Assembly (NCBI GenBank): GCA_019694955.1
Contig: JAIBAX010000005.1
Coordinates: forward strand, 62,001 to 126,000
Reading direction: 5' to 3'
DNA: 64,000 bases
From: Chitinophagales bacterium
GTDB taxonomy: Bacteria; Bacteroidota; Bacteroidia; Chitinophagales; JADIYW01
In this document: positions 13,516-25,660 of the stretch, piece after piece
Layout: the number at the start of each line of letters is the position of its first letter
Numbering within the stretch: the stretch's first letter is position 1
Program-made: the position numbers and the translations under genes
The notes under the pieces: model-generated
Seen by the model: only the letters and a program-made list of their open reading frames with translations
The model's database searches: none
Told to the model about the DNA's origin: nothing

Positions 13516-14811
13516 TTGAAACCACATCTAATCATAAAAACAAAAACAGCAGTTACTGCTTCCCGAATTCCTTTCTGGGGCGACTTCATTAAAAACAAAA
13601 CGGGAGAAATAAGTAACTTTTTCCCGGAATTCGATAGCATACTTTCCAATAACCATTTAAATTTTTGGCTTACACAAGAATACAAACCTGTTTCTGAACA
13701 TTGGTCAAATGAAGAAATCAATAGTGGATTAAATAGAATTTATAGGGTTATACTAAAAGAGAACTTTGCATTTCCAGAGCGCTTACTAGAGCAAATAAAA
13801 ATCATACCGCTTGTAGAAGATGTAAGACCAGCCTTAGTAGCAGACGCTCCCATTCCGATTGCTTCATCCATGTCACTACAACCAAATATTTCCCGCTCAA
13901 GAGAAATAATAGGGCTTAAGCAAGCACATTTTTATTGCAAAGGAAATCCTTCCATCAAAATTGCCGTATTAGATACCGGAGTGGATGCACAACATGCAGA
14001 ACTCAGAACTGCTGTATCAAATCAAGCTGATTTCGTTAATTTAGATGGGTTAGATACTGTGGAATTCGTTGGAGACATTACTGGATATGATGAAGTGGCT
14101 GAGGATGAAGTAGGCCATGGCTCTCATGTGGCTGGTATCATCGCAGGCAAAGGAAAAGAAATGCCACTTGGAGTGGTACCTGAATGCAAGATTATGGCGG
14201 TTCGGGTACTTGCCAGCATGAAACAAGGTGATAAACTTGTGGGCGCCGGACTTATCGACAATATTAATGTTGGCATAAAGTGGGCAATTGACCACGGCGC
14301 CGATATAATAAATATGAGTTTAGGCATAAAACATAGTGGCGGAGGCTTACCACATGAAGAAATCATACAATACGCCAAATCAAAAGGCGTAACCATTGTA
14401 GCGGCCAGTGGCAACGATGGACAAAATAACAAATATTACCCCGGTGCACTACCGGGTGTAATAGCCGTAGGCGCTATCAATGACGATAGAGAAGTGGCAG
14501 ATTTTTCTTCGTATGGTGCAAATGTTTCATTAAGTGCTCCCGGCACAAATATTTATAGTTCTTATGCCTACGGCAAATATGCCTTTGCCTCCGGAACATC
14601 ACAAGCGTCACCATTTGTTGCTGGGGCCGTAGCTTTGCTCAAATCACATGCGCTCTCAAAAGGCTATCGCCTAAAAGACAATCAGGTTAAATATATACTT
14701 AAACATACTTCAGACAAGGTAAACACTCGGTTCAAAGATGAAAAAGCCGGATATGGCGTAATCAATCTGGCGGACGCAATAAAACTTTTAAATTATCAAT
14801 TAACATCATAA
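13516..14811 (+). CDS. Subtilisin-like serine protease (S8), no signal peptide
   Basis: A 431-residue S8 peptidase with the full triad: Asp153 in IAVLDTGVDAQHAE, His201 in VGHGSHVAGIIAGKG and Ser362 in SGTSQASPFVAG, with Asn300 in ASGNDG for the oxyanion hole. Residues 1-115 are unlike the catalytic domain and may be an inhibitory propeptide or targeting domain. No hydrophobic signal is visible, so it resembles intracellular subtilisins. The start is TTG at 13516: an in-frame stop lies just upstream and the next ATG would remove over 100 residues. It is first in a row of ten same-strand genes and may process or activate their products (inference). Confidence 0.9.
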   Translation: MKPHLIIKTKTAVTASRIPFWGDFIKNKTGEISNFFPEFDSILSNNHLNFWLTQEYKPVSEHWSNEEINSGLNRIYRVILKENFAFPERLLEQIKIIPLVEDVRPALVADAPIPIASSMSLQPNISRSREIIGLKQAHFYCKGNPSIKIAVLDTGVDAQHAELRTAVSNQADFVNLDGLDTVEFVGDITGYDEVAEDEVGHGSHVAGIIAGKGKEMPLGVVPECKIMAVRVLASMKQGDKLVGAGLIDNINVGIKWAIDHGADIINMSLGIKHSGGGLPHEEIIQYAKSKGVTIVAASGNDGQNNKYYPGALPGVIAVGAINDDREVADFSSYGANVSLSAPGTNIYSSYAYGKYAFASGTSQASPFVAGAVALLKSHALSKGYRLKDNQVKYILKHTSDKVNTRFKDEKAGYGVINLADAIKLLNYQLTS

Positions 14812-14822
14812 AATCAGATAAG

Positions 14823-16652
14823 ATGGGAAATTTTGGAATCACAAATTTTGGCAGTTCAAACGTAAACGGTTTGCGATTTGGCACCATCGGCAAGGAACCC
14901 GATCCTTATGCCGTAGAACAATTAAAAATACTCGGAAATCTACTCAGCGGAAAATTGATGAGTAATGATTGGGATCAGGCAGAAGAAAATGCTGAGGATT
15001 TCGGCTTGTATAGACTACTCACTACGCCTTTCCTCAAAAAAGGTAAAGACAACGACCTTTATGAAATCATTCCAAACTATAGGAATGACATGACTTTGCG
15101 CACATTCTGCGAAAAGCGAGTACCTTCACTCTTCTTTGAATTCAATTCACACTTCAATGATGCCTCCTCATCGCTCACTTTCAATCAGAAGCAGATACTA
15201 AGCCATAATAATATCAGAGATTTCTTATTTCTGAAAGCTGTTTACATTGAACAACTGAATAATGTTAAATCCATATTCAGTTACATGACACAAACAGGTA
15301 GTGCTTATCTCAACGTCTTTCAAGCAGTTGCAGTAAAAGCCTCAGAAAGAATTCGCGACAACGAGAAAATAAAATTAGGACATATCACAGCGTCCGACAG
15401 AATTATTGAGTTGCTAAAAGGCGAAGAATTCTCCATGGAGAAAACCATCTTCTATAATGAGATTAAAAATATCATCAATAGAATGGTCTTCGACCTCGAT
15501 AATTTGGATTTGATATCAAAAGTAGAAAAAGAACTCGGCGATATTATTTCCGACGACGATGTTCCGGCTATACTCAACTACTTGAAATCATCCAACATCA
15601 AAATTGATGCACAAAATGCCAAGTACTTTATTCCCATTGCCGTTAACAACCTAAAAAATAGCAATATTTCATATTCCAGTACCTCTTCGGGTGCTGCTTC
15701 GGAATTCGACTTTGCTGTTAATTATTATGAAGACGACAGAGCCTCTTTAGAAATTATTAAAGAAAACATCGTTTGTGCCAGCCAATTGTATTATGTAATG
15801 GTATTGGGCGATGAACTGGGAATCTTTAACATCATCAACTACATTGCCACCAAGAAACTTCCTGCCGGAAATATGGACATCAGAAACCGCGATACCTTAA
15901 AAGACTTGCAACTATACATCTTTAGTGAGAGTTTCAAAGACCTTCGCAATGGAGAAATCTTCAAACGCACACTCCCTGCTGAAAGAATGATGTTCTACAA
16001 ACAAGTGTATAGCGTTGGAGATGAACAAACCTTAGAAGGAATGGCCGTCAATAACGACTATAACAGACTTTGGTCAATACTTATGAAAGAGTGTGTAGAC
16101 TATATTCAACGAGTAGAAGACACTACCAATAGCGGATATAGCATTTCCCGACAAAAAATTATGCAGGCTATAGAAGATTTGCAATACAATCTTTCTACCC
16201 ACTGCACAGGAATGTCGAAAGTAGCCACGCCGATTATGTACAAAGAAATGGATTTCGTCATCGAGCGTTTCATGAAAAATGAGGAAATTACCAGACAAAT
16301 TTCATTAGGGAATTCCACTTCTTTCTGGAAAGTAATCGAAAGAATTTTATTTGAAATGCAAGGAGAAGTACCCAATGTGGCTGCCCTTCGCAACAAAGCC
16401 GTATTTGGACATCGCATACTCTCATTCATTGCCAATTACACCCCTGCACAGGTCGCCGATGATGTCAAGTTCAACGATTTTCTTTCTACGGTAGAAGCAT
16501 TTATTATTGCTGAAAGTCAACTACAAGACAATCCCATGGATATGAGAAGTGAAGATCCTGCCGACAATGCAAACGGTAATATGGGAGGCTATCCTGGAAT
16601 GAATGGCGTCAATAAAAATGTACCCGTAGGTGCTGACGATTGGAATTTTTAA
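14823..16652 (+). CDS. Unrecognised 609-residue helical protein of the protease/murein-hydrolase cluster
   Basis: I do not recognise this protein. It begins with a Gly/Asn/Phe-rich stretch (MGNFGITNFGSSNVNGLRFG), then reads as a long alpha-helical protein without signal peptide or membrane segment, and ends in a flexible Asn/Gly/Met-rich tail (about residues 575-609) finishing ADDWNF. There are no obvious nucleotide-binding or catalytic motifs. It starts 11 bp after the subtilisin gene and 21 bp before the next gene, so it belongs to the same operon. A scaffold or structural role is possible but unsupported. Confidence 0.75.
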   Translation: MGNFGITNFGSSNVNGLRFGTIGKEPDPYAVEQLKILGNLLSGKLMSNDWDQAEENAEDFGLYRLLTTPFLKKGKDNDLYEIIPNYRNDMTLRTFCEKRVPSLFFEFNSHFNDASSSLTFNQKQILSHNNIRDFLFLKAVYIEQLNNVKSIFSYMTQTGSAYLNVFQAVAVKASERIRDNEKIKLGHITASDRIIELLKGEEFSMEKTIFYNEIKNIINRMVFDLDNLDLISKVEKELGDIISDDDVPAILNYLKSSNIKIDAQNAKYFIPIAVNNLKNSNISYSSTSSGAASEFDFAVNYYEDDRASLEIIKENIVCASQLYYVMVLGDELGIFNIINYIATKKLPAGNMDIRNRDTLKDLQLYIFSESFKDLRNGEIFKRTLPAERMMFYKQVYSVGDEQTLEGMAVNNDYNRLWSILMKECVDYIQRVEDTTNSGYSISRQKIMQAIEDLQYNLSTHCTGMSKVATPIMYKEMDFVIERFMKNEEITRQISLGNSTSFWKVIERILFEMQGEVPNVAALRNKAVFGHRILSFIANYTPAQVADDVKFNDFLSTVEAFIIAESQLQDNPMDMRSEDPADNANGNMGGYPGMNGVNKNVPVGADDWNF

Positions 16653-16673: not shown

Positions 16674-17687
16674 ATGAATCAACAATTAATGCCGGAAATT
16701 AAAGAACAAGCTCGCGCCATGGCCAGAGATATTCTCGTTAGAAGTCAATCATTCAAAGCAATGCCGCCTGATGAACAACGCAGTATATACCTGACATTAG
16801 TGGATGAAAATATCCATAAGCTTGCCAAACAACACGGACTAGTAAAAGAAATGGCACAAAGCAAAGGTCCGGGTGCCGAAATGGGATTTGGCGGTTACAA
16901 TCCCGGATTAGAAGGCAGTGTAGATGCCTTTGAAGACTTGGTAGACTCCGTAGATTTTCCAAAGTTTGTCGCCGACCTAATGAAAGCGGTATTTGATGCT
17001 AATATCACCGTCATGAAAAAACAAACAGATGATTATATCCGTTTGATGAAAGAAGCCACAAAAGGTGTTGCCGATTTTGTTAAAAAAGTAAAAGACGACG
17101 ATTCCTTTGCATACCTTGCAGAAACAAAAGGCAATCAATTTGGCATCCAAATGGAAGATTCGCCCGATGGAGGATCAAAAATGGTACTTACCAATCCTGA
17201 AGGAGAAAAAGTCGACATGGAAGACAATGAAGTAAAGGCGAAGATCATGGAAGCGAAAATCGCCATGGCCAAAGAACACCGTGCCGCACTCCGCGAAGTC
17301 ATCTTAATGGGTGTAACCCGCTTGGTAGTTGAGAAAGGAGAAATCGATGCCGCCGTAGAATTCAGCATCAAATCCACCAGAAAAAGCAACAAATCACATA
17401 AAGACCAAAACATCAATACCACATCCCTAAACATGGAGTATGGTGGTGGTTTGATGGGAAGTATTTTTGGAGGGCCAAGTGGGAGTATGAACATGACCAA
17501 TACCAACATTCAGGTAAACACCTCAAACAAAGATGCTACGGATGAAATGACTGCAAAACTTACAGGGCACGTGAACATCAAATTCAAGACCGATTATTTC
17601 AAACTCGACAATTTTGCAAACATGTATGCCGATGGTGGTATTGCAGCACTAAAACCAGCAGCTCCGGCTGCCGTTCCAGCAAAATAA
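16674..17687 (+). CDS. Unrecognised 337-residue cluster protein, weakly DUF2589-like C-terminal half
   Basis: Function unknown. Residues 1-190 are helical and charged. About residues 210-320 are beta-rich: AAVEFSIKSTRKSNKS, then a Gly/Ser/Asn-rich stretch (MEYGGGLMGSIFGGPSG), then AKLTGHVNIKFKTDYF. This strand-loop-strand layout weakly recalls DUF2589-type proteins, but I would not assign it on sight. It ends in an Ala/Pro tail (LKPAAPAAVPAK). No signal peptide or membrane segment. It lies 7 bp before the next gene. Confidence 0.72.
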   Translation: MNQQLMPEIKEQARAMARDILVRSQSFKAMPPDEQRSIYLTLVDENIHKLAKQHGLVKEMAQSKGPGAEMGFGGYNPGLEGSVDAFEDLVDSVDFPKFVADLMKAVFDANITVMKKQTDDYIRLMKEATKGVADFVKKVKDDDSFAYLAETKGNQFGIQMEDSPDGGSKMVLTNPEGEKVDMEDNEVKAKIMEAKIAMAKEHRAALREVILMGVTRLVVEKGEIDAAVEFSIKSTRKSNKSHKDQNINTTSLNMEYGGGLMGSIFGGPSGSMNMTNTNIQVNTSNKDATDEMTAKLTGHVNIKFKTDYFKLDNFANMYADGGIAALKPAAPAAVPAK

Positions 17688-17694
17688 TACGGCA

Positions 17695-19695
17695 ATGGCA
17701 CTGGCTTACCTAAAACTTGAAAGCAACGAGAACAGCGTAGTCAGATTCAAAGCTGATATTGGCACTAATAGGTGGTTTAGATATATCATCGGCAAAAAAA
17801 AAGACCATCAAAACGGCATTGACATCATCGACGAGGTCATTCATGAATCCAAACTCTTTGAACAATCCAACGAGAATCCCTTCAACAGTTCTTTTAATCT
17901 TGAAATTGCAGACGACTTATTTAGGGATGGACGTAAGTATGTTCAACTATTGAGTTATAAGGACAATCGAGGGACATCTCCTGCCGTTTCAAGTGCCGTT
18001 TTAGTGTTTAAAACAGTTGGCATAGGTGAATTGCCGACATTGGAACTTTCTTTATCACAACCAGAAAACAAAACGATGCAAACACAATCTTTTAATAGTT
18101 GCAGAAATGTAAGTTTTTCCTTTCAGGAAAGCAAATTCAGTGATGCCATGTTTCTGGATGCATTGCTGAATGTGGTTAAACTTTTGGCACCAACAGCAGT
18201 AAATGCAATTGGCAGTGCCGCCGGGATAAATCCATCTAGCAATACACAAATATTGCAAGTTGTCAATGGCGTTATTGATGCCATCAAAAATGCCACTCCT
18301 GCTGCCACGCCAGCCGCCAATCCCGCACCAGTGCCAGCGCCTGCACAACAGGTTGCAGAAGCGCATGCGCTCAGTTATGCCAAAACATCCCGAACGGCTA
18401 AATTTATCAATAAAAATAAACCCATCTCCAAAGGAATGATCATCGATGGTGGCGTAATTACCGGTCCACTGCTGGCTTCGCTGGCAGGCCCGGTTTTACA
18501 ACAAGCACCGCAGATTTTACAAACCTTGCTTGGCAAACCAATAGAATTGATGAATGCTATTATGAACTTCAACTTACAGAAGCGCCAGAATGAGCAAAAC
18601 TTCATGACAAACCTCATCAACTCAGTCAACCAAGACACCTTGCTGAGTGAAATGATAAGAAATGGGATGATGCCCGCCAATTTGGGAATAGCACAAAGCG
18701 TAAGCCATCAAATCACGCCTCCCAATGTTTCTCTAAAAATAGATATCGGGACACCTATGGAAGTATTTGGGAAACCAAAGTATGTGTACGCAACAACAAA
18801 AGGCATCCGCTTCACCTTAAGCACCAACTTTACAGAGAAAATACCCACCGCTCCCCTGCCGAAGGCTATCGTTAAAGTTTGCTTTAAAGATGCCACGAAT
18901 TCAAAGAAGTACTTTGAGAAACACTTTAAACTCAAAGACATCCTTCCAAATACACCCTTTCAAGTAGATTTCTTTCCCGATGAACTCAACGCCCTACCTG
19001 CACAAACAGATATACTGATGGACGTACAATTCTTATGGAAATCTGAAAAAACAGGAAAAGTATTCAGCCTGACAGCGCATCATGTAGTCTTCTTTGTGCA
19101 GCAATATATTTTACTTGACTTCGGAGATACTATCAGTGAAGAATTGTCCTTAAAAGACATGGAGCGTTTCCGTCCATTTTGGCACAAAGTATGGGAAGGG
19201 GCGACCTCCAACAAAGTTAAATGGGACATAGAAGCTACTTTCAGGTATTATACTTTTTACCGTCCGCTCGCCGATTCAAATGGGAGAATAGAAACAAAAA
19301 TTTCAAAGACAGAAAATGAAGAACAAGCGTCAGACTTACGGCTAGAAATCAGGGGTTCAATGAAATCAGGTTTGGAAATCAGCCCGGTAGAACTTAATAA
19401 GCTCAGTCCATTATTTGGCAAGTATCCTTCTCTACCCATGGAAAAATTAGCTGCATTCAAAACCAGCGATTTGTCCGCATACTTTAATCTTCAGGCGACA
19501 CAGAGCATTCAAATGAAAGGCAAAAAAGAAGAAATTGGCGCACTATGGGTATATCCGGAAGTCACCCTAAAAGGTGCAACCCTTGGAAAAATAGAAAAAA
19601 CCAATGAAAATGGTCAAGTCATAGAACACAGCAAGGAGAATGCTTACCTCCCGGCAGTGACTTCTGTGCATTTTGTAGGCTTAAAAACACAATAA
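17695..19695 (+). CDS. Unrecognised 666-residue beta-rich cluster protein
   Basis: Function unknown. Residues 1-105 look like a beta domain (FKADIGTNRWFRYIIGKKK, then YVQLLSYKDNRGTSPAVSSA). A low-complexity Ala/Pro linker near residues 200-222 is followed by a hydrophobic Gly/Ala/Leu segment (GPLLASLAGPVLQQAPQILQ, about residues 260-282) that could insert in a membrane or form a coiled helix. The remaining 400 residues are strand-rich. No catalytic motif was recognised. It could be a carrier or scaffold for the hydrolases encoded downstream; this is inference from position only. Confidence 0.73.
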   Translation: MALAYLKLESNENSVVRFKADIGTNRWFRYIIGKKKDHQNGIDIIDEVIHESKLFEQSNENPFNSSFNLEIADDLFRDGRKYVQLLSYKDNRGTSPAVSSAVLVFKTVGIGELPTLELSLSQPENKTMQTQSFNSCRNVSFSFQESKFSDAMFLDALLNVVKLLAPTAVNAIGSAAGINPSSNTQILQVVNGVIDAIKNATPAATPAANPAPVPAPAQQVAEAHALSYAKTSRTAKFINKNKPISKGMIIDGGVITGPLLASLAGPVLQQAPQILQTLLGKPIELMNAIMNFNLQKRQNEQNFMTNLINSVNQDTLLSEMIRNGMMPANLGIAQSVSHQITPPNVSLKIDIGTPMEVFGKPKYVYATTKGIRFTLSTNFTEKIPTAPLPKAIVKVCFKDATNSKKYFEKHFKLKDILPNTPFQVDFFPDELNALPAQTDILMDVQFLWKSEKTGKVFSLTAHHVVFFVQQYILLDFGDTISEELSLKDMERFRPFWHKVWEGATSNKVKWDIEATFRYYTFYRPLADSNGRIETKISKTENEEQASDLRLEIRGSMKSGLEISPVELNKLSPLFGKYPSLPMEKLAAFKTSDLSAYFNLQATQSIQMKGKKEEIGALWVYPEVTLKGATLGKIEKTNENGQVIEHSKENAYLPAVTSVHFVGLKTQ

Positions 19696-19696
19696 T

Positions 19697-19831
19697 ATGG
19701 AAGAGCAAGAAAACGAAGAACACGCTTCAACAATAGACACTTCTTCTACCGAAGTGAGATTTGAAGGCTATAATGTAGAATTTGATGTGAAAATCAAATT
19801 AATTCCTGTTCAATTGAATGAAAAGAAATGA
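19697..19831 (+). CDS. Small 44-residue acidic cluster protein
   Basis: ATG at 19697, one base after the preceding stop; its TGA overlaps the ATG of the next gene (ATGA at 19828). The product begins with an acidic, Ser/Thr-rich stretch and ends VRFEGYNVEFDVKIKLIPVQ, a likely pair of beta strands. The coupling on both sides and the strand pattern argue that it is real. Function unknown. Confidence 0.6.
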   Translation: MEEQENEEHASTIDTSSTEVRFEGYNVEFDVKIKLIPVQLNEKK

Positions 19832-20118
19832 ACGACAACAGGACAGATATAGATGAAGCCTTTGTTTCCTTACACGAAAAGATTGCCGCTTTTTGTGAGG
19901 AAATGATTGTCATACAAGATATGCCGCATGCTATACAGATGCGTGTAGAACGTTTGGAGATAGACACACCCATAGAAATAGATATCATCGAAGATGAATA
20001 TGGTACTCTGCAAATCGGGGCTGTCCCTCCACTGTATAAAGTAGCTACTTCTATTGAACCTATATACCATCAGATTAAATTTCGCATAGATGTAAAACAA
20101 AATCATCATGGAAAATAA
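19828..20118 (+). CDS. Small 96-residue cluster protein
   Basis: Overlaps the previous gene by 4 bp and the next by 11 bp. The N-terminal 35 residues are helical; then RVERLEIDTPIEIDIIEDEY and GAVPPLYKVATSIEPIYH suggest a compact beta domain. The layout (a conserved strand, an acidic turn, then PP and a late His before a final strand) recalls small partner proteins found next to trypco-type conflict-system genes, but I cannot name a family with confidence. Confidence 0.7.
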   Translation: MNDNRTDIDEAFVSLHEKIAAFCEEMIVIQDMPHAIQMRVERLEIDTPIEIDIIEDEYGTLQIGAVPPLYKVATSIEPIYHQIKFRIDVKQNHHGK

Positions 20119-20845
20119 AGCCTGGAATTTAGAATCATTTGTAGATGCACTCGTTGTAGAATTGGATAAAACCAAGGAAACGCTGGCAGTGAAAGCGGTC
20201 AATAAACCACTAACATATACTGTTAAAGACATGGCATTGGATTTACAAATATTCCCTTCCTATGATGGCGACCAAGTGAAATTTGTTACAGCGCAGGCAG
20301 GACAGTCAGGTGCCTCAAAAATCACCATTCAACTGGCATCTATAACAGACAATCAGGTACGGGCAACCACCAAAAAACCGCAATCAAAAGACGACCTCGA
20401 TTTAGAAAAAGTAGAAATAGACCCAGAGACTAAAAAATCATTGAGAAAGCTCGGTGTAAAATCTGTTGATGACCTAAAACAAATAGAAGAAAAAAATATC
20501 GACATAGAAAAAGTCAGCGAGAAGAAGATAGATTTTAAAAACCTTGCTAATCTGATAGAAAAATCACGACGTGACGCAAAACCACCTTTGGTAAAAAAAG
20601 TCAGCATGAGCATGCAAAACAATCAACCCATTTTAGTCGTCGAAGGCAGCAATTTAGCCGTTAATAAGAATTTCAATCCCGTTGCCGTCATCAATGGGAC
20701 GCTGGCGGAAGTTAAAAGCTTCAATAGCCATAAACTAGAAATTGAAATTGATAAATCCCAACTAGAAAAAGGGAAATCTGATTTAGTCATCACATTAGAT
20801 CCGTATTCCCTATTTAAGATTAACTTGAATAAAAGCAGGATATGA
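20108..20845 (+). CDS. Protein with trypco2-like N-terminal domain and C-terminal TIG-like beta domain
   Basis: A 245-residue protein. Residues 10-80 (FVDALVVELDKTKE, then TYTVKDMALDLQIFP, then VKFVTAQAGQSGASKITIQL) follow the pattern of the trypsin-co-occurring domain trypco2: an initial helix with V-x-E-L, two strands, and a late G-x-x-K-I-x-I-x-L strand. In known families this domain accompanies proteases in bacterial conflict systems. Residues 110-130 (LRKLGVKSVDDLKQI) look like a helix-hairpin-helix, and residues 165-240 (PILVVEGSNLAVNKNF) like an IPT/TIG fold. The assignment is by eye and tentative. The ATG of the next gene overlaps its stop. Confidence 0.65.
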   Translation: MENKAWNLESFVDALVVELDKTKETLAVKAVNKPLTYTVKDMALDLQIFPSYDGDQVKFVTAQAGQSGASKITIQLASITDNQVRATTKKPQSKDDLDLEKVEIDPETKKSLRKLGVKSVDDLKQIEEKNIDIEKVSEKKIDFKNLANLIEKSRRDAKPPLVKKVSMSMQNNQPILVVEGSNLAVNKNFNPVAVINGTLAEVKSFNSHKLEIEIDKSQLEKGKSDLVITLDPYSLFKINLNKSRI

Positions 20846-22359
20846 GCAACAAATATAGCAAAGACCTAAGCCGCATTATACAAGGTTATTATGGCATCCC
20901 CGCCACAAAGAAAATTGTTAGTGAGAAAACACATAAAGTAGTCATCACACAAAGTTATGACAATGGCGTAAGCCTAAACATGTCTTACTCCACAGAAGAA
21001 TATGTCGAGTATCAGGTACAGCAATCTCGGGAAAATTTTGTTGAATACGAAGTAATGGGCGCAAGTGAATTACCCCTGGTACAACAATCATCCATTCCCT
21101 ATTACGACACGCTGAGTGATGATGTTTTCATTGAAGATTTTACCGAAACAGCATCAGACCATTCAAATAACGTCTCCGTACAAAAAAGTCAAGAGTACGA
21201 CTTCCCCATTGAGCAAAGTCTTGAGGACAAAGAGCATCACATGATTTCTTTCGAAGAAGAAAAACCCAAAACGTCGAACGTCAAAAAGAGTTCCTCACAA
21301 AGTGTCGACGAAGATGATTTTCTATCAGATATGAAAGCCATCCTTCGTGGAGAGAAACGTTTTGAAAAAGAACAAGGTATGGTAGAAGCAAAGAGTACTC
21401 CAACCAAAAACCCACCACCTCCAAAAGAAGAAGAAACGCAAAACCTGCGTGACTTTAAGAGTGAGCATGCCATTTTCGATAAAATCGCTCAAAGCATGCA
21501 GTACGCCAATGCCTACGACTTAGGAAGCTTTGATTTAGAGCAGCGTTTTGATGACTTCGATAGAATAGAGGAATTAAAGGAAAAAAAATCAAAAGGAACA
21601 ACCTCTAAGAAGAAATCCAATGCCATGAGTGATGCGGAACTGGTTTTTGAAAAAGCCGACCACAGTGATTATATCGAAGACTTGGATTTAATGAAGTCAC
21701 TATCAGAAAAAGAAACATTCTTCCAGTCTTTGGAAGACACACGCATCAACAACCCTGATTGGCCATCCCGACCAACGACCATGAGACCGTACACGCTAAG
21801 CGAGAAAAAGGCAACATTCGGAACGTTTGAATATACCACCACGGAGGGAGATGATATTCACATAGATCCGGAATGGGTGAGGGATAATATTGTTTCAGTA
21901 GAAATACCACAATTAATTGGCAAGATAAATGGCAGTAAAGCCGACAACAAAGTAAGGAAAACGAAAAGCATGCAATTCCACAGAAAAGGGGCTACACAAT
22001 TAGCGGCTTTGTTTAAAGCTTGGGAAGATGCCGGCTTACTAGATAGGATTATCACTTTCAATGGAGACTTTGTGCCAAGATTTGTTCGATTGACAAAAGC
22101 ACAAAAAGAATGGGAAGAACGCAATGGCAGACGCATTGCCTTTGAAAACAGGTCCCTCAGCAACCATTCATGGGGAACAGCCTTTGACATCAATGCAGAA
22201 TGGAACAGACGCGAGCATGTTCCTGCCCTACTTAGCAAAGAAGGCTGTGTAAGAGAATTAGTAGAAATCGCCTACCAACACGGCTTTTTCTGGGGTGGAC
22301 ATTTCAAAGGAAAAAGCATCGATGGCATGCATTTCGAATTAGGCAAAATCATACAGTAA
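20842..22359 (+). CDS. Murein peptidase of family M15 with long disordered N-terminal region
   Basis: A 505-residue protein. About residues 1-320 are charged and low in complexity (runs of Glu, Ser, Lys, proline clusters such as KNPPPPKEEE) and probably disordered. The C-terminal 170 residues are a zinc D,D- or L,D-carboxypeptidase/endopeptidase domain: His442 and Asp449 in NHSWGTAFDIN and His497 in IDGMHFEL, the M15 metal site. Phage endolysins of this family cut the murein stem peptide. No signal peptide is present although the substrate is outside the membrane. It overlaps the preceding gene by 4 bp. Confidence 0.82.
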   Translation: MSNKYSKDLSRIIQGYYGIPATKKIVSEKTHKVVITQSYDNGVSLNMSYSTEEYVEYQVQQSRENFVEYEVMGASELPLVQQSSIPYYDTLSDDVFIEDFTETASDHSNNVSVQKSQEYDFPIEQSLEDKEHHMISFEEEKPKTSNVKKSSSQSVDEDDFLSDMKAILRGEKRFEKEQGMVEAKSTPTKNPPPPKEEETQNLRDFKSEHAIFDKIAQSMQYANAYDLGSFDLEQRFDDFDRIEELKEKKSKGTTSKKKSNAMSDAELVFEKADHSDYIEDLDLMKSLSEKETFFQSLEDTRINNPDWPSRPTTMRPYTLSEKKATFGTFEYTTTEGDDIHIDPEWVRDNIVSVEIPQLIGKINGSKADNKVRKTKSMQFHRKGATQLAALFKAWEDAGLLDRIITFNGDFVPRFVRLTKAQKEWEERNGRRIAFENRSLSNHSWGTAFDINAEWNRREHVPALLSKEGCVRELVEIAYQHGFFWGGHFKGKSIDGMHFELGKIIQ

Positions 22360-22373
22360 TTAAATAGAAATAT

Positions 22374-24851
22374 ATGGAAAACAGATTCTTAACAATGGAT
22401 AATTACCTGAAAAACTTAAGGGCAATTCCAACAGACAATAATATTCGCGCCAAAGGTTCTAAATCCGGGCGCTCTAGATTTAGAGCTTTCCAACCGGAGG
22501 TCGGTGCGATGTCATATAACGGATTTTCTAAACCATTTACAGCATCTCAAAGAGTTCTGATCGTATTGATTGAAAATGGCGGTATTGAAATCGACACAAG
22601 AAAAATCCTCGAGCCACTACTCCAAGTGATTCCTGAAACCTTCCGTGAAACAGCATTCAGCTATTTAAACCGAAAAATTAAGGAATATACCGACACCATT
22701 CTCGAATCAGCAGAGTTATACCTCAATAATTATGCAGGCTCCAGCCCTGATTTTTACGGCAATGTCGTCATCCTCAGGAATGGAACGGCTACTTTCGAAG
22801 AACTTAAAAATGCGTTAACAACCTACTCCAAACAAGATAAAACTATTGATTTATACATCCTCACCCATGGCAGCAATGAATATATCTCCGTTAATGGTGG
22901 TGGAATAAATGCGGCAAAAATTGAAAGCATAAAAGCAGCAAATGGCGGCAATAACCTAAGAATACGCTCCGTTTATATGATGAATTGCTACGGCTCCACC
23001 TTAAATACGGCCTGGCGAAATATCGGTGCAAGAGTCGTTTCGGGAACTGTTGGGTTAAATGTACTACCGGAACCAACCACTTATTTTTTATTTAAGGACT
23101 GGAAGAATGGGAAACCTTTTGGTGCAGCCGTCACAGATGCCTATCAGAAAACCATTAATTTCCTAAAAGACATTATACGCAATCTCCCATTACCCGACAT
23201 GGTGAAATCCATCATTCTAGGTTTTGATTTCAGCAGTTTTGATGTTATAAAATCCAGTGCACCTGTTGTTGTGGGCGATCAAAGCGTTACCATTGGCAGC
23301 GATAATCTTTCATTTTCGCAAACGGTACACTCCGCCTTTGCGCTAACCGTAACGCCTTTACACAGACTTTCGCTGTTCCAAGAAGTCATTCCGAGAACGA
23401 TGACTTTGACCATTTCTCAGAAAGGCATTGATTTTATTCTTTCATATGAAGGCTTTCGAGCCAATAAATACAATGATGCTGCCGGGCATTGCACCATAGG
23501 CTACGGACATTTAATACATCGTGGAAATTGCAATGACGACAGTTCGGAGGCACAGTTTTCAGGAGGTATTACTCAGGAAAGAGCCAAAGAACTCTTTATG
23601 GAAAGAATCCGCCCGGTGGAATTGCTCATCAATGAAGAGGTAAAGACAGAAATGACACAAGCACAATTCGATGCATTGTGCAGTTTTACTTTTAACGTTG
23701 GCTCCGGCGCCTTCAAAGGTTCTACATTACTGAAAAAACTGAATGCCGGCGACTATGATGCTGTACCCGTCGAGATGAACAAATGGGTAAATGCCGGTGG
23801 GCGGAAATTAGAAGGCTTGGTCAAAAGAAGAAAAGGTGAAGGAGAAATGTTCTCCGGTGGCATCTACTCCAACCACCAAAGCCTGATGGGTCGTTCATTT
23901 GAAAATACACCGCGCGGGATTCGCAATAATAATCCGGGAAACATCCGCCTCACCGACCAAAAATGGGAAGGCAAAGTACCCAATAAAGACAATACGGACA
24001 AATCCTTTGAACAGTTTACCAGTTATGCTTATGGTGTTAGAGCGCTAATAGTTCTATTAAAAAATTATATCACCAAAGGAAGGAATACCATTACAGCTAT
24101 TTTTGGGGCGTATGCTCCCCCCAATGAAAACAATACGCAGAATTATATTCGCTTTGTTGCCGAACGCTTGGGCGTAGGTGCGGATGCGCCGCTTTCTCTC
24201 ACAAAAAATATATTGAAAGAATTGGCACAAGCCATCGCAAAAATGGAAAATGGAGTCGAGTGCATTTCAGACACGCAGTTTGATGAAGGGTTTGCACTAT
24301 TATCCGATGACATGAAAACTGCCATTCAGCAGTCATTTTATTTTGGACAAGAATATTACTATGGAATGAATGCAGAAGAAGCTTCCGAAGGTGCTGAAAA
24401 CGATACAGCCGGAATCATTGCTGTCAGCAAATCATTCTCCATTCCATCCTATTGTCCAATTAATACCGCTACTACGGCAGGTACGGAGCATTTTTCATTG
24501 GGAGAATTTGGTTCTAAAGACGGTAAAGACATTCCGGATGGTGTGAAAGGCAATATCCAACAACTCATGGAGCAGTTAGAAGTCCTTCGTGCAGAAGTTG
24601 GCAAACCCATAAAGATCGTTTCCGGTTATAGAAGTCCGGAGCATAATAGCTCCGTAGGTGGTGTTTCACAAAGTCGCCATATGTGTGGACAGGCTGCGGA
24701 CATACGCATTAATGACATGACACCTGCTGAAGTACACCGCACCATAGAATCATTGATATCTACGGGAAAAATGAGACAGGGAGGGTTAGGTCTATATAAT
24801 TCATTTGTTCACTACGACATCCGCGGAACTAGAGCCCGTTGGAACGGTTGA
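22374..24851 (+). CDS. Caspase-like / GH24 lysozyme / M15A peptidase fusion protein
   Basis: An 825-residue multidomain protein. (1) About residues 125-265: a caspase-fold segment with His165 in IDLYILTHGSNE and Cys205 in YMMNCYGSTL, a credible His-Cys dyad. (2) About 345-495: GH24 muramidase, Glu359, Asp368 and Thr374 spaced exactly as the T4 lysozyme triad (E-x8-D-x5-T), followed by GYGH. (3) About 512-625: a domain starting PRGIRNNNPGNIR, as in phage virion-associated wall-cutting proteins. (4) About 700-825: peptidase M15A, with His769 and Asp776 in SRHMCGQAAD and His813 in FVHYDIRG. No signal peptide. It combines protease, glycan-cutting and peptide-cutting parts. Confidence 0.85.
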   Translation: MENRFLTMDNYLKNLRAIPTDNNIRAKGSKSGRSRFRAFQPEVGAMSYNGFSKPFTASQRVLIVLIENGGIEIDTRKILEPLLQVIPETFRETAFSYLNRKIKEYTDTILESAELYLNNYAGSSPDFYGNVVILRNGTATFEELKNALTTYSKQDKTIDLYILTHGSNEYISVNGGGINAAKIESIKAANGGNNLRIRSVYMMNCYGSTLNTAWRNIGARVVSGTVGLNVLPEPTTYFLFKDWKNGKPFGAAVTDAYQKTINFLKDIIRNLPLPDMVKSIILGFDFSSFDVIKSSAPVVVGDQSVTIGSDNLSFSQTVHSAFALTVTPLHRLSLFQEVIPRTMTLTISQKGIDFILSYEGFRANKYNDAAGHCTIGYGHLIHRGNCNDDSSEAQFSGGITQERAKELFMERIRPVELLINEEVKTEMTQAQFDALCSFTFNVGSGAFKGSTLLKKLNAGDYDAVPVEMNKWVNAGGRKLEGLVKRRKGEGEMFSGGIYSNHQSLMGRSFENTPRGIRNNNPGNIRLTDQKWEGKVPNKDNTDKSFEQFTSYAYGVRALIVLLKNYITKGRNTITAIFGAYAPPNENNTQNYIRFVAERLGVGADAPLSLTKNILKELAQAIAKMENGVECISDTQFDEGFALLSDDMKTAIQQSFYFGQEYYYGMNAEEASEGAENDTAGIIAVSKSFSIPSYCPINTATTAGTEHFSLGEFGSKDGKDIPDGVKGNIQQLMEQLEVLRAEVGKPIKIVSGYRSPEHNSSVGGVSQSRHMCGQAADIRINDMTPAEVHRTIESLISTGKMRQGGLGLYNSFVHYDIRGTRARWNG

Positions 24852-24865
24852 TAAAACCATCAAAT

Positions 24866-25660
24866 ATGTATACTAACAGATTCATTTCCAACGCATTTTC
24901 AATACAGAGAAAAAACACACCGAAGAAATTTTCTTTCTCTGCCTCCACCACCTTCAAAGTAGTTGAAAATGGTGTATTAATGGATGGTTATTACCGCGAC
25001 CCATCCGAAAAGCACTCGAAAGGTGGCAGAGAAAAACACCTCGGCGTGGATATCACAGGCCCTACTGATGGTGGTGCCTCCGTTCGTGGCAAACTAAATG
25101 ACCCCAGAAGAGGGTTGCCGGTTTATTCATGTATTAACACCATCATTCCAATAAATGACTTAAATCAAGCGAAAGTTTTTAACAAAACGACCAATAGCCT
25201 CGTAACAGGTGTCGGTATTCAGGGAACGGGAAATGCAGAAATGATCGAGGCAAAAATAAAAACACAGCCATGGAAAGATACCAGCGACCATGCATATGGC
25301 GGCATTGTAGGATTTCACTGTTACTACCGTTATAATAATTTGCAAGGCACTAGATCCGAGTTTACTGCTTGGATAGAATTTCTACACCTGATAACGGATG
25401 AATTTCCACCGAGATATGGAAGCTCAGTTGCCACCAAGGATGAGTGGAATGCCTTGGGCAGAGGCAATGGCTGGGGACCGGAAATAAAAAACAACGCTGT
25501 TGTACCTCCATCGTTCTTTCAAGGCCCCATATATAGCATTATCGGATATTTGGGTGCTACACAATCTCCACATGTACATGTGCAAGTAGCATTCCATGAT
25601 GGTCATAGCAATAGCATGCAAAATACGATAAGAATCGACCCGTTAATTTTTGTCTATTGA
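24866..25660 (+). CDS. M23-like murein endopeptidase
   Basis: A 264-residue protein with the LytM/M23 zinc site: His58 and Asp62 in KHLGVDIT, and His236/His238 in SPHVHVQVAF. The segment between them (about 170 residues) is longer than in minimal M23 domains and holds Tyr- and Trp-rich loops. The ATG at 24866 is chosen over a TTG at 24839 that would overlap the previous gene. No signal peptide. It is the last gene of the cluster; its end overlaps the convergent kup gene by 7 bp. M23 enzymes cut peptide crosslinks of murein. Confidence 0.75.
   Translation: MYTNRFISNAFSIQRKNTPKKFSFSASTTFKVVENGVLMDGYYRDPSEKHSKGGREKHLGVDITGPTDGGASVRGKLNDPRRGLPVYSCINTIIPINDLNQAKVFNKTTNSLVTGVGIQGTGNAEMIEAKIKTQPWKDTSDHAYGGIVGFHCYYRYNNLQGTRSEFTAWIEFLHLITDEFPPRYGSSVATKDEWNALGRGNGWGPEIKNNAVVPPSFFQGPIYSIIGYLGATQSPHVHVQVAFHDGHSNSMQNTIRIDPLIFVY

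What the first reader, a model, noticed from the sequence alone, without database searches (positions are those of the whole stretch)
22374..24851. Fusion of a caspase-like domain with a T4-lysozyme-type muramidase and an M15A peptidase
Seen: His165 and Cys205 in caspase-like sequence contexts, Glu359-Asp368-Thr374 with exactly the T4 lysozyme spacing, a RGIRNNNPGNIR domain, and a complete M15A site (His769, Asp776, His813), in one 825-residue chain. Caspase-like domains and murein hydrolases are not usually joined. The caspase part could release or activate the wall-cutting parts by self-cleavage.
Basis: partly seen in the sequence, partly recalled or inferred. Interest (0 to 1): 0.82.

Follow-up and report, generated by a model that had tools for sequence, protein, structure and literature searches.

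The report
Caspase-like domain fused to wall-cutting enzymes
A bacterium of the Bacteroidota carries one protein that joins a protein-cutting domain of the caspase type to three cell-wall-cutting domains, and this protein is one of a set of tagged, mix-and-match enzymes in an undescribed gene cluster found in several bacterial phyla.

Summary
The 825-aa ORF is real. It holds a short N-terminal leader, a caspase-fold domain (aa ~44-315), a T4-type lysozyme (357-489), an NNPGNIR domain (511-674) and an M15 peptidase (721-815). The caspase reading is supported: His165 and Cys205 are invariant in 9 of 9 aligned relatives, and a modest AlphaFold2 model (pLDDT 61) matches only caspase-fold proteins among the rows shown (SAVED-CHAT Z 10.2, gingipain, caspases). 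No Pfam family covers it. The protein sits in a 9-gene operon: S8 protease, five unknown proteins, an M15 'adaptor', this protein and a probable M23 enzyme. Fourteen of 21 loci found with one core gene hold the same cluster, in Bacteroidota and one actinomycete; plasmids of a cyanobacterium and Burkholderia hold versions too. The enzymes after the core vary (lysozyme, M15, M23, caspase plus a PLC-like domain, DUF4347). They share a new N-terminal leader (20 of 41 ORFs against 1 of 527 others). The window protein fuses modules that relatives encode separately. Best reading: a polymorphic-toxin-like effector whose caspase domain frees the wall-cutting part from its docked leader. Cleavage, delivery and target are inferred. 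No exact copy of the fusion was found.

The parts
22374..24851 (+). 825-aa fusion effector: leader, caspase-fold domain, T4-type lysozyme, NNPGNIR domain, M15 peptidase
   Evidence: ORF; domains
22374..22418 (+). N-terminal leader MENRFLTMDNYLKNL, shared in pattern with other enzymes of related clusters
   Evidence: leader regex in 20 of 41 cargo-region ORFs, 1 of 527 others
22503..23318 (+). caspase-fold domain (aa 44-315); His165 codon 22866-22868, Cys205 codon 22986-22988
   Evidence: dyad invariant in 9 of 9; fold; CED-3 in register, E 0.64, not significant
23442..23840 (+). T4-type lysozyme domain (aa 357-489; E359, D368, T374)
   Evidence: PF00959 E 2.7e-41; 41-45% identity to lysozymes of related clusters
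23904..24395 (+). NNPGNIR domain (aa 511-674), probable second glycan-cutting or virion-type lytic domain
   Evidence: phrog_873 E 5.6e-46; 52% identity to L035 cargo
24534..24818 (+). M15 peptidase domain (aa 721-815; H769, D776, H813)
   Evidence: PF08291 E 5.6e-20
20842..22359 (+). 505-aa 'adaptor': N part conserved in related clusters (disordered-looking, my reading), plus C-terminal M15_4 peptidase
   Evidence: PF13539 E 6.9e-14; N part matched in L032-L037, L039-L042, L045, best E 1e-19; whole protein against L035, E 2e-80
24866..25660 (+). probable M23-type endopeptidase with leader MYTNRF (start at an internal ATG; the longest ORF begins at 24839)
   Evidence: no Pfam hit, so M23 is my reading of the H..D and HxH pattern
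13516..14811 (+). S8 (subtilisin-like) peptidase, first gene of the operon; triad motifs at 153 (DTGV), 200 (GHGSH), 360 (GTSQA)
   Evidence: PF00082 E 4.9e-52
14823..16652 (+). core protein c600 (609 aa), unknown
16674..17687 (+). core protein c340 (337 aa), unknown; most widespread core family
17695..19695 (+). core protein c660 (666 aa), unknown
19828..20118 (+). core protein c96 (96 aa), unknown
20108..20845 (+). core protein c245 (245 aa); weak resemblance to Trypco2 and TIG domains

Best explanation
The 825-aa protein is one of several leader-tagged effectors of an undescribed operon. The core proteins (S8 protease, c600, c340, c660, c96, c245) form a soluble complex or particle. The adaptor and the effectors dock to it, the effectors by the short N-terminal leader M-x(0-3)-N-R-[FIL]-[FIL]-x-[LIM]. 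In this effector the caspase-fold domain acts as a releasing peptidase: once triggered, by delivery, cell lysis or a signal, it cuts the chain on its C-terminal side. That frees the wall-cutting part (lysozyme plus NNPGNIR domain for glycan strands, M15 for peptides) to destroy peptidoglycan. Shown: the domains, the conserved dyad and fold, the conserved operon, the leader, and the swapping of payloads. Inferred: docking, self-cleavage, the role of S8, delivery, and whether a rival or the cell itself is the target.
For: His165/Cys205 invariant in 9 of 9 rows. Foldseek: SAVED-CHAT E 3.2e-5, then caspase-8; the 50 rows shown are SAVED-CHAT or caspase entries. VIA-align: 8tl0 Z 10.2 (rmsd 3.6, 170 aligned), gingipain RgpB Z 9.1, caspase-6 Z 8.5, then Raptor, metacaspase and separase. 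In three relatives (L032, L033, L037) the same domain is internal, behind the same kind of leader, and precedes an unrelated payload with a PLC-like look. The core cluster is in 14 of 21 loci found with c340. Leader: 20 of 41 against 1 of 527; a pattern taken from six clusters rings in 7 of 22 cargo-region ORFs of the other six and in 0 of 429 other ORFs. The window lysozyme and NNPGNIR domains are 41-45% and 52% identical to cargo of related clusters. None of the nine window proteins has a clear signal peptide or TM segment (maximum KD19 1.59). Caspase-like releasing peptidases upstream of toxins are described (PMC3482391, section 11).
Against: No cleavage site can be seen in the window protein: the YSxAK motif that lies between caspase domain and payload in L032, L033 and L037 is not kept there. 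The model is of modest confidence (pLDDT 61.2) and the matches have high rmsd (3.6-5.4). No immunity gene specific to the effector is evident. No contractile sheath match was found in the window's genome, so no known delivery machine is at hand. The leader was not seen in the Couchioplanes cargo or in the Tolypothrix and Burkholderia clusters (read by eye).
Confidence: 0.45

Rival explanations
1. Programmed self-lysis. The operon senses infection or damage; the S8 and caspase-like proteases are switched on and release leader-tethered wall-cutting enzymes inside the producing cell, which lyses for the benefit of its kin.
For: All nine proteins look soluble and cytoplasmic; two protease classes sit with lytic enzymes; no immunity gene is evident; the best structural match is the SAVED-CHAT protease of CRISPR defence (CRISPR link from abstracts); effectors with a common N-terminal adaptor that carry lysozyme-like domains are described in conflict systems (PMC7159879, passages).
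Against: No recognisable sensor or NTPase in the operon; no PADLOC match beyond subtilase models and one weak one; cytoplasmic hydrolases need a pore to reach the wall, and none is identified.
Confidence: 0.25
2. The caspase-like domain is a protease that acts in trans: on proteins of the target cell, or on other operon proteins such as c660 and cargo that carry YSxAK-type sites.
For: Related caspase-like proteins without such a payload exist (G052, G757, G407, G426, G518); YSxAK occurs 16 times in cluster ORFs against 2 in background.
Against: In window, L032, L033 and L037 the domain is internal, upstream of another enzyme, the position typical of releasing peptidases. The YSxAK count is dominated by one homologous family, and an unbiased search for shared 6-mers found no general excess.
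Confidence: 0.17
3. The caspase-fold domain no longer cuts and serves only as a structural or binding part.
For: Inactive caspase-like repeats occur in toxins (PMC3482391, section 11); Raptor, a match, is to my recall an inactive caspase fold.
Against: His and Cys are among only 12 invariant columns of the 9-row alignment.
Confidence: 0.08
4. An ordinary phage or prophage endolysin or virion lysozyme with an odd N-terminus.
For: Lysozyme, NNPGNIR and M15 domains all match phage lysis or virion families.
Against: Of the neighbouring core genes only S8 matches a PHROGs family; c340 and the caspase domain have no relatives in viral contigs and c340 none in phages; the cluster is conserved across phyla.
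Confidence: 0.05

Closest known systems
Polymorphic toxins with caspase-like releasing peptidases (PMC3482391, section 11 and passages read)
   Same: Internal clan-CD peptidase just upstream of exchangeable C-terminal toxin domains; N-terminal part fixed by the delivery route
   Different: The leader is a short new motif, not a known trafficking domain; no effector-specific immunity gene is evident; three wall-cutting domains in one chain; core genes match no known family except S8
SAVED-CHAT / TPR-CHAT proteases of CRISPR systems (search listing and abstracts only)
   Same: Best structural match; His/Cys caspase fold in bacteria
   Different: No CHAT Pfam match; no SAVED or TPR domain found; no CRISPR link looked for; fused to wall-cutting enzymes
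DUF4347 domain proteins
   Same: Carried by leader-bearing cargo of related clusters (L035, L038) with a GHG...GCN pattern that may be another His/Cys protease
   Different: Different family; function unknown; a T6SS effector candidate PA0256 bears it (PMC8262886, one passage)
Conflict-system effectors joined to EAD1-type adaptors (PMC7159879, passages read)
   Same: Common N-terminal module on variable effectors, including lysozyme-like and papain-like peptidoglycan enzymes; S8 and trypsin peptidases nearby
   Different: No STAND NTPase, vWA-MoxR or GTPase seen in the window operon
Phage endolysins and virion lysozymes
   Same: Homologous catalytic domains
   Different: Context, leader and caspase domain

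Membership tests
Caspase fold (clan CD) | Caspase-like fold | tested here: met
   model pLDDT 61.2 and pTM 0.61, so moderate support
Caspase fold (clan CD) | His then Cys, each after a core strand, conserved in relatives | tested here: met
   H165 and C205 in 9 of 9 rows; strands E114-120 before H122 and E153-158 before C162 of the domain
Caspase fold (clan CD) | Cysteine protease activity | not testable with these tools
   needs purified protein
Pfam CHAT or Peptidase_C14 family | Sequence profile match | tested here: not met
   none of 9 members matched either family at E up to 10 (filters drop most matches above 0.1)
T4-type phage lysozyme (PF00959) | Profile match and E-D-T catalytic residues | tested here: met
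   (141 bits, cut-off 22.3)
Peptidase M15 (PF08291) | Profile match and zinc ligands H, D, H | tested here: met
   (71.9 bits, cut-off 23.2); subfamily M15A not tested separately
Polymorphic toxin with releasing caspase | Internal caspase upstream of swappable C-terminal toxin modules | tested here: met
Polymorphic toxin with releasing caspase | Known N-terminal trafficking domain | tested here: not met
   no family at the N-terminus; only the new leader
Polymorphic toxin with releasing caspase | Adjacent effector-specific immunity gene | tested here: inconclusive
   No further gene between the effectors and the next, opposite-strand gene; immunity proteins are too diverse to exclude
Passenger of eCIS, PVC or T6SS | Contractile sheath in the genome | tested here: not met
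   no PF04984 match in G000 or G173; one in G699. Only this one sheath family was tested
T9SS cargo | C-terminal sorting domain | tested here: not met
   no such domain on the fusion
Known anti-phage system (PADLOC 2.0.0) | Profile match of signature genes | tested here: not met
   only subtilase and IetS models on the S8 gene and one weak MTase_III match (E 0.0014) on c660

The most novel reading that the evidence does not exclude
The operon is a new kind of non-contractile, soluble effector-loading system, spread over at least four phyla. Core proteins of unknown fold build a carrier. A short N-terminal docking motif loads interchangeable wall- and membrane-attacking enzymes. Built-in proteases (S8 in trans, caspase-like or DUF4347 in cis) unload them.
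Probability: 0.3. Interest if true: 0.88.

Novelty: new variant of a known kind. Interest (0 to 1): 0.62.

Why it matters
If right, it shows caspase-type proteolysis wired directly to cell-wall destruction in one chain, and gives a testable entry into an undescribed, horizontally spread cluster with its own targeting leader. The leader can be used to find new lytic enzymes and to test how the core loads them. A cleavage-released multi-domain lysin would also interest those who engineer lysins.

Tried and rejected
Weak single-sequence caspase hits in G116, G124, G237, G361 and G387 were dropped. A profile of the nine true relatives finds only G124 again, at E 0.0038 over 44 residues, without a caspase pattern.

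Viral contigs hold no relative of the caspase domain or of c340 that the tool could find; phages hold none of c340; plasmids hold none of the caspase domain.

A c340 structure was predicted but is too poor to search (pLDDT 55.9, pTM 0.30). Profiles of c660, c340 and c245 find nothing convincing among solved structures (best E 0.012, 0.17, 0.33). Reading c245 as a Trypco2 protein was not accepted: E 0.14 in one of 13 members and 0.0098, below the curated cut-off, in Burkholderia.

The YSxAK motif as a cleavage site was not accepted: it is striking but chosen after the fact, mostly within one homologous family, and absent from the window fusion. An unbiased search for shared 6-mers gave no general excess.

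More clusters were sought for an independent leader test: 1 of 321 genomes (order of G699, the known one) and 2 of 328 (own order: the window itself and G173, whose coordinates agree with the Pseudoflavitalea record L035), so nothing new. The leader was therefore tested by splitting the known clusters; the pattern and its spacing were already known to me then, so this is a partial hold-out only.

Paper searches that found no description of this fusion or operon. They cover the open-licence library only.

Full report
Observation. Pfam gives a phage lysozyme at 357-489 (E 2.7e-41) and Peptidase_M15_3 at 721-815 (E 5.6e-20). The NNPGNIR stretch is phrog_873, 511-674, E 5.6e-46. The region called caspase-like matches nothing in Pfam, NCBIfam, PADLOC or PHROGs at the thresholds used.

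Is the caspase domain real? Relatives were found by protein and profile search. In the window's order, 7 of 396 genomes gave a match at E <= 0.01; of these I keep two, the window's own and G052. A profile search of 395 genomes of the phylum gave 5, the window's own and four more. Three clusters from a search with a neighbouring gene carry it too: L032 Fulvivirga marina, L033 F. imtechensis, L037 Rhodonellum. The alignment of nine rows has 12 invariant columns, among them His165, Gly166 and Cys205. The five other weak hits were dropped after a profile check. AlphaFold2 on four sequences gave a model of modest confidence (mean pLDDT 61.2, pTM 0.61) with the strand order expected of a caspase fold (my reading) and the dyad after the third and fourth core strands. 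Foldseek ranks the SAVED-CHAT filament first (E 3.2e-5), followed by caspases. VIA-align gives SAVED-CHAT Z 10.2, gingipain RgpB 9.1, caspase-6 8.5, then Raptor, metacaspase and separase. The rows shown are all of the caspase fold; rmsd is 3.6 to 5.4, so detail should not be read from it. A profile search of solved-structure sequences placed CED-3 second with HG and Cys in register, but E is 0.64, which is not significant.

The surroundings. The gene is the eighth of nine closely spaced genes on one strand: S8 peptidase, c600, c340, c660, c96, c245, a 505-aa adaptor with an M15_4 domain, the fusion, and a probable M23 enzyme. A scan of genome contigs with a c340 alignment gave 21 loci. Fourteen hold the same cluster: 12 with the S8 gene in the DNA held and 2 at contig ends. 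Thirteen of these are Bacteroidota by record title, including one that is the same locus as the unnamed G699; one is the actinomycete Couchioplanes, with 71% G+C. The remaining seven loci hold only distant c340 relatives. A tblastn search of plasmids with c245 found Tolypothrix and Microchaete (three records) and Burkholderia pyrrocinia pBPJTT; the Tolypothrix and Burkholderia clusters that I fetched also hold S8, c600 and c340 relatives. The cluster is rare: 1 of 321 and 2 of 328 genomes in two orders.

The payloads. Downstream of the core the genes change from cluster to cluster: lysozyme (L034, L036, L040), M15/VanY (L034, L039), M23 (L040), NNPGNIR plus DUF4347 (L035), duplicated DUF4347 (L038), and leader plus caspase domain plus a 400-aa domain with a zinc-phospholipase look (L032, L033, L037; that label is my reading, as Pfam finds nothing). 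In Couchioplanes that 400-aa domain sits on the adaptor protein instead (36% identity), and half a lysozyme is fused to another cargo family. In Burkholderia one 1254-aa chain joins an amidase, a C92 permuted-papain amidase and a C70 papain-like protease, again protease and wall-cutting domains together. The window protein is thus a concatenation of modules that relatives encode apart: its lysozyme is 41-45% identical to cargo lysozymes and its NNPGNIR domain 52% to the L035 cargo; its last M15 domain has no cargo relative in the clusters held. No held record shows the whole order: 0 of 1221 matching plasmid records and 0 of 3035 matching phage records cover 80% of it, and of the 6 of 60 relatives with a match only the window's own genome covers all of it.

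The leader. Cargo proteins begin with M-x(0-3)-N-R followed by hydrophobic residues in a helix-like pattern. The regex was found in 20 of 41 cargo-region ORFs, which include adaptors and short spurious ORFs, and in 1 of 527 other ORFs. It was written after seeing the data, so I took a pattern from six clusters and tested the other six: 7 of 22 cargo-region ORFs, 0 of 429 other ORFs. With leader and following residues removed, leader-bearing proteins fall into six single-linkage groups, one of them held together by the window fusion itself. The leader was not seen in the Couchioplanes cargo, so it may be a Bacteroidota feature.

Mechanism. None of the nine proteins has a clear signal peptide or membrane segment (maximum KD19 1.59), and the genome holds no match to the phage-sheath family PF04984. 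The simplest reading is a soluble carrier or depot to which effectors dock by their leaders and from which proteases release them. The position of the caspase domain, inside the chain and just ahead of the enzymes, is that of the releasing peptidases described for polymorphic toxins (PMC3482391, section 11 read). Whether the target is a rival or the cell itself cannot be told from sequence. A YSxAK motif lies between caspase domain and payload in L032, L033 and L037 and also in c660 and other cargo (16 hits against 2 in background), but it is missing from the window fusion and an unbiased test gave no support, so I do not use it as evidence.

Verdict. The fusion is a new variant of a known principle. 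The larger prize is the undescribed operon with its leader. Paper searches in the open-licence library found no description.

Noticed in passing
L066:6815-10579 (Burkholderia pyrrocinia plasmid pBPJTT): A 1254-aa chain joins Amidase_2, a C92 amidase and a C70 papain-like protease next to S8, c245, c600 and four c340 paralogues.
   Followed up: partly
L041:6632-17047 (Couchioplanes caeruleus, 71% G+C): Complete cluster in an actinomycete; c340 is 57% identical to the window's, the highest identity of the 21 loci in that scan, which suggests transfer between phyla.
   Followed up: partly
   Followed up: partly
L050:8368-9222: A lipoprotein-like ORF with a legumain- or caspase-like pattern (MGHGGG ... 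MTCHSGG) lies upstream of a distant c340 pair.
   Followed up: no
L036:6503-18475 (Lacinutrix neustonica): The cluster looks broken: S8 in three ORFs, c600 and c660 in pieces.
   Followed up: no
L040:8764-10941 and 14978-15808: The unrelated c660 and M23 cargo share the 8-mer LEPEMIIE, which may be a common docking or cleavage site.
   Followed up: partly
L038:14153-17320, L042:14266-17484: Over 1000-aa leader-bearing proteins; that of L038 has two DUF4347 domains with a GHG...GCN pattern.
   Followed up: partly
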